DNA of 64,000 nt from Echinicola arenosa (lineage in GTDB: Bacteria > Bacteroidota > Bacteroidia > Cytophagales > Cyclobacteriaceae): assembly GCF_014841125.1 (NCBI RefSeq), contig NZ_JACYTQ010000001.1, positions 1 through 64,000 of the forward strand. The letters are read 5' to 3'. The notes below the pieces were generated by a model. The model searched no databases and was not told the origin of the DNA. It worked only from the letters and a program-made list of their open reading frames with translations. Of this stretch, positions 536-8,895 are shown piece by piece. Position 1 is the stretch's first letter; each line of letters opens with the position of its first letter. A program made the position numbers and the translations under genes.

Positions 536-886
536 TATTTTAGAAACATCTCCCTCTATTGTGATGTTCTATTGTCACTTAAATACCTTAACATCACTCT
601 TTAAAATAACATCATACTTATGGCACTCCTGCAGGATGATCCATTACACGTTCCTTTCTGGTTCAAGACTAGAATGTTCCAAAATCTCTATAAATTGTTG
701 CCTTGGAACTTCCCACATATCAAGATCCTTCCGACTTCCACTAAAGTAGTAGCAAAGCTGGGGTAAAGCTACATCAAAGCTGGGGTAAAGTTGGGGTAAA
801 GCTGGGTTAAAGTAGACTTTGGGGCATTTTTCTAAGAATTTGCAACCCAGAAACCAGCTTCTTTATATTTCTTTTTAATATTGTCG
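536..886. other. Gene-free stretch with degenerate tandem repeat
   Basis: I see no supportable gene here. Positions 766-812 carry four or five imperfect copies of an 11-13 base unit resembling AAAGCTGGGGT. A similar array in the opposite orientation lies at about 46990-47050. Confidence 0.5.
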
Positions 887-1080
887 AGTAGGTAAGGGGA
901 ATTTCACCCCAAACCTCTCACAGCACCGTGCGTGATAGTCTCCCATCACACGGCGCTTCCAAAGTCAGGTCTCCTGTTCTTACCGAGGGTTGGGGGTACT
1001 AATTGCCAGTGGGCGAACAGGTTTGGCTTTCCACGGTAGACTGTTTCCAGCCACCTGATTGCCTTTCGTTTCCCAATTCT
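887..1080 (-). mobile_element. Group II intron 3' end remnant (domains V-VI)
   Basis: Read on the minus strand, 922-957 folds as a group II intron domain V. The lower stem begins with the catalytic triad AGC and pairs CCGTG with CACGG. A two-base CG bulge and a GAGA-type loop are in the expected places. Domain VI follows at about 887-921 as a stem ending near TACTCGAC. Just upstream on the same strand, 950-1080 encodes a fragment resembling the C-terminus of an intron reverse transcriptase/maturase, with RGKPNLFAHWQ. The rest of the intron is absent and REP repeats abut it, so this is a degraded relic. Confidence 0.75.
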
Positions 1081-7328: not shown

Positions 7329-7404
7329 GTTTATTATTAACTTAACCCATTGTTCTAGTAAGTTAAGGTCATTCAACTTTAAACATCATTATTGCGTGGA
7401 GGTC

Positions 7405-7456
7405 GACACAGCTGCGGGCCAGCGGTGGCCTTGCGGGAAGAAGCTTTAGCTGTGTC
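7405..7456 (+). other. Structured hairpin in the IS110 leader
   Basis: GACACAGCT at 7405-7413 pairs perfectly with AGCTGTGTC at 7448-7456. Inside, GGCC-N6-GGCC forms a second stem. It lies upstream of the proposed bridge RNA core and may be an end-recognition structure or an extra RNA domain. Confidence 0.4.
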
Positions 7457-7509
7457 TTGATTTTTCCCTTCCTACCGGCCTTTAGGTTTACAAAGGAGGA
7501 TCAATTTGG

Positions 7510-7705
7510 AAAATTAGACTTGGGTCTTAAAGGTTTATAGGTAACACAGATATTTAATAAATTAAAAAAGAATGGGGTGAACTTTCCTGCCGCATAGGTT
7601 TCCAGACCTAGTGCCTGTATCAGTCCCCATTCTTAATTGAGTTGTCAGTAACCAGTTAGAATTTTAGGCTCCAAGGCCTGCTAAAGGTTTTAGTTTCCGC
7701 AACTC
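7510..7705 (+). ncRNA. Candidate IS110 bridge RNA
   Basis: Three successive hairpins match the known bridge RNA plan of 5' stem-loop, target-binding loop and donor-binding loop. They are a short AGAC/GTCT hairpin at 7516-7527, a 10-bp perfect stem at 7568-7577/7625-7634 with a large internal loop and an inner TAGGT/ACCTA stem, and a GAGTTG/CAACTC stem at 7639-7644/7700-7705 with an inner TTTAG/CTAAA stem. In the second hairpin the 3' loop strand, 7612-7620, is the exact reverse complement of 8763-8771 at the right flank of the element. In the third, the 5' loop strand at 7656-7662 equals the right-end sequence 8758-8764. Both guides end in AT, consistent with an AT core. The left-side guides could not be matched to a left end. 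Confidence 0.6.
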
Positions 7706-7733
7706 TCATTTGTTAAAATACAATATCTAAATT

Positions 7734-8729
7734 ATGAAATTCAAATCATTTATCGGAATCGATGTAAGTAAATCTACCCTTGATGTTTATCTTAAAACCA
7801 ATCAATGCCATGCTATTTTCGAAAATAACGAACAAGGGCACCTGGAGCTGGTGGAATGGGTTATGGAAAATTCAGGATTAGTGCTAGCTAAGGAGCTTCT
7901 TTTTGGTTTTGAATCCACAGGAATCTACTCTTCAGAACTTGCTTTGTTTCTTGAAAAATATTCCCTCCCCTTTTATATCATATCAGGACTGGAATTGAAG
8001 CGGTCTTTGGGAATAAGAAGAGGAAAATCAGACAAGGCGGATTCAAAAGATATAGCCGAATATCTCTACGAAAAGCAGGAGAAACTTGTTCCCACGGTTC
8101 TTCCATCACAGACCATTCAAGATCTAAAGAAGCTATTTAATTACAGAGAGGGGCTTGTAAAAGACAGAGCGGCATATATAACCCGTATCAAAGAATATGA
8201 AACTGTCGTTTCCAAGAACAAATTAAAAGTCTACCAAAAATCCCATACTACAGTGATAGCATGTTTGGACAAGCAGATTGAAACAGTTGAAAGAGAAATA
8301 GACAGGCTTTTGCACAAGGAAGAACTGTTGCTGAATCAATACAACCTGATTAACTCTGTTAAGGGAATAGGGCCGCAAACTGCTGTTGCCCTTATCGTTT
8401 TAACAGAAGGTTTTACCTTATTCAATAGTTGGAGAAAGTTTGCCAGCTATGCAGGAACAGCGCCATTCCCTAACCAGTCCGGCACATTTAGAGGCACAAC
8501 AAGAACAAGCAAATTGGCAAATAAGAGAATAAAAACACTATTGACCCTATGTGCAGGAACAGCTATTCAATATAGTCCAGAAATGAAGATATACTACCAG
8601 AAGAGGGTAAGCGAAGGGAAAAGTAAAATGAGTACGCTTAACGTTATTAGAAATAAACTTCTTTCAAGAGCCTTTGCCGTAGTCAACCGTAATACCAACT
8701 ATGTAGACATCGTAAAATATATCAATTAA
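7734..8729 (+). CDS. IS110-family transposase
   Basis: This 331-residue protein has the two-domain IS110 layout. The N-terminal RuvC-like DEDD domain starts with FIGIDVSKSTLDVYL (first Asp at residue 10), continues with FGFESTGIYS (Glu) and has the paired Asp residues in KSDKADSKDIAEY. A coiled-coil stretch follows at about residues 150-205. The C-terminal Tnp domain has SVKGIGPQTAVALI and FASYAGTAPFPNQSG, the second holding the conserved nucleophilic Ser. IS110 enzymes are RNA-guided recombinases that use both domains. The gene is full length and appears intact, so the element may be active. Confidence 0.93.
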   Translation: MKFKSFIGIDVSKSTLDVYLKTNQCHAIFENNEQGHLELVEWVMENSGLVLAKELLFGFESTGIYSSELALFLEKYSLPFYIISGLELKRSLGIRRGKSDKADSKDIAEYLYEKQEKLVPTVLPSQTIQDLKKLFNYREGLVKDRAAYITRIKEYETVVSKNKLKVYQKSHTTVIACLDKQIETVEREIDRLLHKEELLLNQYNLINSVKGIGPQTAVALIVLTEGFTLFNSWRKFASYAGTAPFPNQSGTFRGTTRTSKLANKRIKTLLTLCAGTAIQYSPEMKIYYQKRVSEGKSKMSTLNVIRNKLLSRAFAVVNRNTNYVDIVKYIN

Positions 8730-8895
8730 AATATTTTAAATTCTTCTTGTTTTAACCTTAGAATACAGGCAGGTTTGCTTCGTTTCTTTTCATCTAAGGA
8801 AAAGAAATGAAGAGTTAAGCCTTGAAAACAGTCTTAATCACTGATAAAAACATATCCATATATTAAACTGTAAAAATAGTTATACCGATATTCTA

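What the first reader, a model, noticed from the sequence alone, without database searches (positions are those of the whole stretch)
7510..8771. IS110 leader folds as a bridge RNA, and its loops match the element's own right junction
The leader forms three hairpins in the order known for IS110 bridge RNAs. In the target-type loop, 7612-7620 is the exact reverse complement of 8763-8771. In the donor-type loop, 7656-7662 equals 8758-8764, and a longer stretch AACC-AGTTAGAAT aligns with 8754-8764 with one 2-base gap. These two matches meet exactly at AT 8763-8764, which predicts an AT core and the right boundary. This coincidence is unlikely by chance and gives a testable guide set. I could not place the left end.
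Basis: partly seen in the sequence, partly recalled or inferred. Interest (0 to 1): 0.78.

Follow-up and report, generated by a model that had tools for sequence, protein, structure and literature searches.

The report
IS110 element with bridge RNA
This is a jumping gene of the IS110 family that carries its own guide RNA; comparison with relatives shows that the RNA's two loops match the insertion site and the element's own ends, so it is a new but ordinary member of the known bridge-RNA kind.

Summary
Comparative evidence settles the case. About 25 related IS110s in Bacteroidota share a leader RNA whose stems covary (13 of 21 pairs with compensatory changes, 0/500 shuffles as high). Left and right target guides follow each element's own flanks (0 of 100,000 permutations reach either score). 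Six copies of one element, and exact empty sites in Algoriphagus algorifonticola, fix the ends. In the window the left core is GC 7478-7479, the element runs 7480-8764, and the right core is AC 8765-8766. The target is a small extragenic palindrome. Joining right and left ends creates TTG-N20-TAnnTT(TG), a Bacteroidota-type promoter, in 21 of 21 elements (one with N19), as IS621 does with a sigma-70 promoter. Verdict: a well-supported new member of a known kind; transcription and activity are untested.

The parts
7480..8766 (+). IS110-group insertion sequence, element proper 7480-8764 plus donor core AC 8765-8766
   Evidence: Relatives share sequence only between CTTTAG and TTAGAATAC; six copies at six sites in G265 break at the same bases; exact empty sites in A. 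algorifonticola
7478..7479 (+). left core GC, carried by the target
   Evidence: Register that restores palindromic targets in relatives and agrees with empty sites
7469..7477 (+). left target half TTCCTACCG
   Evidence: Matches LTG at 8 of 9 positions; the mismatch gives a G-T wobble
8765..8766 (+). right core AC, carried by the donor
   Evidence: Constant at all six sites in G265 and in near relatives
8767..8771 (+). right target half AGGCA
   Evidence: Exact complement of RTG
8755..8764 (+). left donor ACCTTAGAAT, ending in the handshake pair AT 8763-8764
   Evidence: Conserved right end; TTAGAAT repeated in LDG; handshake role by comparison with IS621
7480..7484 (+). right donor CTTTA
   Evidence: Complement of RDG; conserved in relatives
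7564..7712 (+). bridge RNA core: target loop followed by donor loop
   Evidence: Covariance model 145 bits, E 4e-32, though the window is one of the model's own sequences; covariation on 22 sequences
7568..7634 (+). target-binding loop; outer stem 7568-7577 with 7625-7634, inner helix 7581-7583 with 7622-7624
   Evidence: 8 of 10 outer pairs with compensatory changes
7584..7592 (+). left target guide TTCCTGCCG
   Evidence: Permutation test of LTG against left flanks
7612..7620 (+). right target guide TGCCT, core complement GT, handshake guide AT
   Evidence: Permutation test of RTG against right flanks; IS621 scheme
7639..7705 (+). donor-binding loop; stem 7639-7644 with 7700-7705, inner hairpin 7666-7679
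   Evidence: Inner hairpin covaries in 3 of 4 pairs; outer stem from the single-sequence fold and near relatives
7654..7662 (+). left donor guide AGTTAGAAT
   Evidence: TTAGAAT equals 8758-8764; conserved in relatives
7682..7688 (+). right donor guide TAAAG plus core complement GT
   Evidence: Complement of CTTTA at 7480-7484 and of core AC (read from the sequence)
7734..8729 (+). IS110 recombinase, 331 aa, DEDD plus serine
   Evidence: PF01548, PF02371, NF033542, IS621 and ISCro4 chains; D10, E60, D100, D103, S249
8746..8749 (+). CTTG, putative -33 box, used only when the right end is joined to the left end
   Evidence: TTG-N20-TAnnTT in 21 of 21 junctions, N19 in one
7483..7490 (+). TAGGTTTA, putative -7 box (consensus TAnnTTTG)
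   Evidence: consensus from PMC7366714

Best explanation
The window holds a complete, single-copy IS110-group insertion sequence (7480-8766) whose 254-nt left end encodes a bridge RNA. The recombinase excises the element as a circle; the joined ends form a Bacteroidota-type promoter that transcribes the RNA. [quoted passage not shown] Top strands are cut after the core (target GC, donor AC) and exchanged, so that donor AT-AC pairs with the handshake guide AT and the core complement GT; bottom strands are then resolved. Shown here: ends, guide-to-flank matching, RNA covariation, catalytic residues, promoter motif. Inferred from IS621: circle, transcription, protein binding, order of strand cuts.
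For: Guides track own flanks, LTG 144 against 84.5 expected and RTG 79 against 34.6, 0 of 100,000 permutations each. Stem covariation 0/500 shuffles as high. Six copies with one guide at six sites whose flanks fit that guide, CCCTTTC-AGGG. Exact empty sites. RNA directly upstream of an IS110 gene in 23 of 25 examined hits. Homology to IS621 and conserved catalytic residues. Junction promoter motif in 21 of 21.
Against: No transcript or activity data. The window's own empty site is not in its genome; its target is reconstructed. LDG lacks the core, and the donor-loop handshake does not pair with the window's target. The -7 box is one base off consensus. The 5' stem-loop of IS621 was not found.
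Confidence: 0.93

Rival explanations
1. One reading: the core is AT at 8763-8764 and the element ends there.
For: The two string matches meet at AT.
Against: Relatives and the six G265 copies keep AC after AT before diverging. Empty sites lack AT and contain GC at that point. No AT stands at the left junction. The AT fits the IS621 handshake position.
Confidence: 0.03
2. The RNA and matches are real, but this copy is a dead or rarely moving relic.
For: Single copy in the genome; -7 box one base off; one mismatch in LTG.
Against: Intact 331-aa frame with all catalytic residues, intact stems and RTG; TAGGTTTA also stands in L057.
Confidence: 0.25
3. The leader hairpins are only a cis-acting mRNA or transcription-control structure, and the guide matches are by-products.
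For: The stems lie directly upstream of the start codon.
Against: It does not explain why both variable loops follow two separate flanks in each relative, nor the strand rules identical to IS621.
Confidence: 0.02

Closest known systems
IS621 / ISCro4 bridge-RNA recombinases (IS110 group)
   Same: RuvC-like DEDD plus Tnp serine enzyme; RNA in the left end; target loop before donor loop; LTG/RTG strand scheme; handshake AT; palindromic extragenic target; promoter formed at the circle junction (PMC11208158, PMC11208160)
   Different: Core is NC (target GC, donor AC) instead of CT; promoter is of the Bacteroidota type; protein only distantly similar (E 2e-14); no 5' stem-loop established
seekRNA elements of the IS1111 and IS110 families (ISEc11, ISEc21, ISKpn4, ISPa11)
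   Same: Noncoding-region RNA selects the target; REP and attC sites known as targets; natural reprogramming between relatives known (PMC11187229)
   Different: IS1111 members have the RNA in the right end, the reverse guide order and sub-terminal inverted repeats
TIGR-Tas
   Same: Weak profile similarity of the protein (NF052498, below cut-off)
   Different: No guide array here; an insertion sequence, not a nuclease system

Membership tests
IS110 family, IS110 group | DEDD RuvC-like domain and Tnp domain with catalytic serine | tested here: met
   PF01548, PF02371, NF033542 over cut-off; D10, E60, D100, D103 invariant in 21 and S249 in 20 relatives
IS110 family, IS110 group | Left noncoding end longer than right and carrying the RNA | tested here: met
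   254 nt against 37 nt by the fixed ends; RNA at 7564-7712
IS110 family, IS110 group | Insertion at a specific short sequence around a short core, as a circle intermediate | tested here: inconclusive
   Site specificity and core shown from flanks and empty sites; the circle was not observed
Bridge RNA | Two loops with covarying stems | tested here: met
   Target-loop stem and both inner hairpins covary; the donor-loop outer stem rests on the fold and near relatives
Bridge RNA | LTG matches left target, RTG complements right target | tested here: met
   0 of 100,000 permutations each
Bridge RNA | Donor guides match the element's own ends | tested here: met
   LDG TTAGAAT equals 8758-8764; RDG TAAAG complements CTTTA; both conserved, so covariation could not be tested
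Bridge RNA | RNA is transcribed, binds the recombinase and directs recombination | not testable with these tools
   needs RNA sequencing and assays
IS1111 group | RNA in a long right noncoding end, reverse guide order | tested here: not met
   Right end is 37 nt; RNA lies in the left end with LTG before RTG

The most novel reading that the evidence does not exclude
In this Bacteroidota clade the crossover overlap is effectively one base: target and donor cores differ at the first position, yet each junction keeps the top-strand version (target's base on the left, donor's A on the right). That would mean that strand cuts or mismatch resolution differ from the two-base overlap of IS621.
Probability: 0.2. 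Interest if true: 0.45.

Novelty: new member of a known kind. Interest (0 to 1): 0.35.

Why it matters
It gives a well-delimited bridge-RNA family from Bacteroidota with both ends, all four guides, empty sites in a close relative, and natural retargeting between close relatives. Its NC core widens the core choice known from IS621, and the junction promoter is phylum-specific. That makes it a candidate tool for Bacteroidota and a natural data set for guide rules. Rfam 15 has no model that finds it.

Tried and rejected
A left end at 7467, suggested by three paralogous repeats, was rejected: those repeats lack the palindrome that was the true target, and relatives diverge at CTTTAG. A GG core (7477-7478 / 8768-8769) was considered and rejected: only the GC/AC register restores perfect palindromes in L050, L057, L058 and L059 and agrees with the empty sites. 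The reconstructed target of the window (TCCTNCCGGCAGGCAGG, one mismatch) was not found elsewhere in its genome. Solo bridge RNAs were sought: two candidates (L121, L133) proved to be remnants with the first codons of a recombinase. A first promoter scan missed sites through a regular-expression fault and was redone. A first pair count failed on string length and was redone. No structure prediction was run, since sequence similarity to solved IS621 was enough.

Full report
Observation. The leader folds well (-42.1 kcal/mol, z -3.5). The chance argument is weaker than stated: shuffled leaders give a 9-nt reverse-complement match to the right-end region in 13% and both matches in 11% of trials. 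The case must rest on relatives.

The gene and its relatives. The open frame 7734-8729 (331 aa) carries PF01548 and PF02371, scores over the cut-off for NF033542 'IS110 family RNA-guided transposase', and aligns with ISCro4 (E 7.5e-16) and IS621 (E 1.9e-14) chains in the PDB. By that alignment the catalytic residues are D10, E60, D100, D103 and S249; the four acids are invariant in 21 family members and the serine is present in 20. The genome holds one copy. Relatives occur in Algoriphagus, Cyclobacterium and other Bacteroidota.

Ends. Aligned relatives share sequence from CTTTAG[GA]TTT on the left to TTAGAATAC on the right, and little beyond. In genome G265 six copies lie at six different sites and break at the same bases. 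In A. algorifonticola the occupied sites read CCCAGCCACGGC|CTTTAGG ... AGAATAC|TGGCAGGCGAAGC, and two unoccupied copies of the same repeat read CCCAGCCACGGCTGGCAGGCGAAGC exactly; seven more have A in place of the T. The right guide of that element calls for T there. All four distinct right junctions seen in A. algorifonticola have T, against two of nine empty sites; Fisher's test worked out by hand gives about 0.02, post hoc. In the window this puts the left core at GC 7478-7479, the element at 7480-8764 and the right core at AC 8765-8766. The reconstructed target is the imperfect palindrome CCTTCCTACCG-GC-AGGCAGG. In relatives it is CCTCCGCCGCGGCGGAGG, TCCGCCACGGCGGA or CCAGCCACGGCTGG (flanks; joining is inference). 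The palindrome sat inside a dispersed repeat: three paralogs in the genome run straight from 7466 to 8774 without it.

Guides. The left target guide 7584-7592 TTCCTGCCG matches the left flank TTCCTACCG; the right target guide 7612-7616 pairs with AGGCA. Over 18 elements the left guides match their own left flanks at 144 of 198 positions, against 84.5 expected and at most 120 in 100,000 permutations. Over 19 elements the right guides match their own right flanks at 79 of 95 positions, against 34.6 expected and at most 60. Close relatives carry different guides and sit in correspondingly different palindromes, which is natural retargeting.

The meaning of AT. In IS621 the two bases after the core complement in the target loop are handshake guides that pair with donor positions 6-7 after strand exchange; in wild-type IS621 they are A81/U82 and the donor has dA6 and dT7 (PMC11208158). 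Here the right guide reads TGCCT-GT-AT and the right junction AT-AC-AGGCA. This explains why it crosses the element boundary and why AT was taken for the core.

RNA structure. On 22 aligned leaders 96.5% of cells pair; 13 of 21 pairs and 58 cells have double compensatory changes, with none of 500 shuffles as high, and slid structures fall to 28-55% paired. The covariance model finds this RNA in 45 of 295 genomes of the family and 15 of 395 sampled from the phylum. Of 25 hits examined, 23 precede an IS110 recombinase gene and two precede truncated remnants. Rfam 15 gives no match.

Promoter. Joining right end to left end gives TTG-N20-TAnnTT in 21 of 21 elements (N19 in one), with the full TAnnTTTG in 14; several of the 21 are near-identical copies. 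The Bacteroides consensus is TTTG near -33 and TAnnTTTG at -7 (PMC7366714). IS621 does the same with a sigma-70-like promoter (PMC11208158). The window's own box is TAGGTTTA, one base off.

Unexplained detail. At the first core position the left junction keeps the target's base and the right junction the donor's A. In the near clade the two differ in 15 of 17 elements counted by eye, and the A. algorifonticola empty sites show G where the right junction has A. Top-strand cutting after the core predicts this for the top strands, but a two-base overlap would leave mismatches that could be resolved either way. This is the only point that might be new in mechanism.

Conclusion.

Noticed in passing
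window 883-958, - strand: Rfam group II intron domain (RF00029, 65 bits, E 1e-10).
   Followed up: no
window 7342-7466 and 8774-8858; L002, L003, L004, L008-L016: Dispersed intergenic repeat with stem GACACAGCT..AGCTGTGTC; three copies in the genome are near-identical without the IS, L008 has a different small hairpin at the insertion point, and a diverged group lies in one orientation on contig C14 within about 36 kb.
   Followed up: partly
L156-L158 (G091) and L159-L164 (G107): In two distant clades of this IS the flanks resemble integron attC sites (CTAACG .. ACTGTTAGC; GCTAAC .. GTTAGC), so some bridge RNAs of this family may aim at attC.
   Followed up: partly
L069-L098 (Algoriphagus ornithinivorans and A. 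algorifonticola): About 40 or more copies per genome of a 150-190 nt intergenic repeat that serves as the landing site of this IS (the search stops at 40 scored candidates).
   Followed up: partly
L121 1501-1644; L133 1501-1655: Bridge-RNA remnants followed by only the first codons of a recombinase; in L121 a repeat containing CAGGTCCTCCGGTCCTGTGCC lies on both sides of the RNA.
   Followed up: partly
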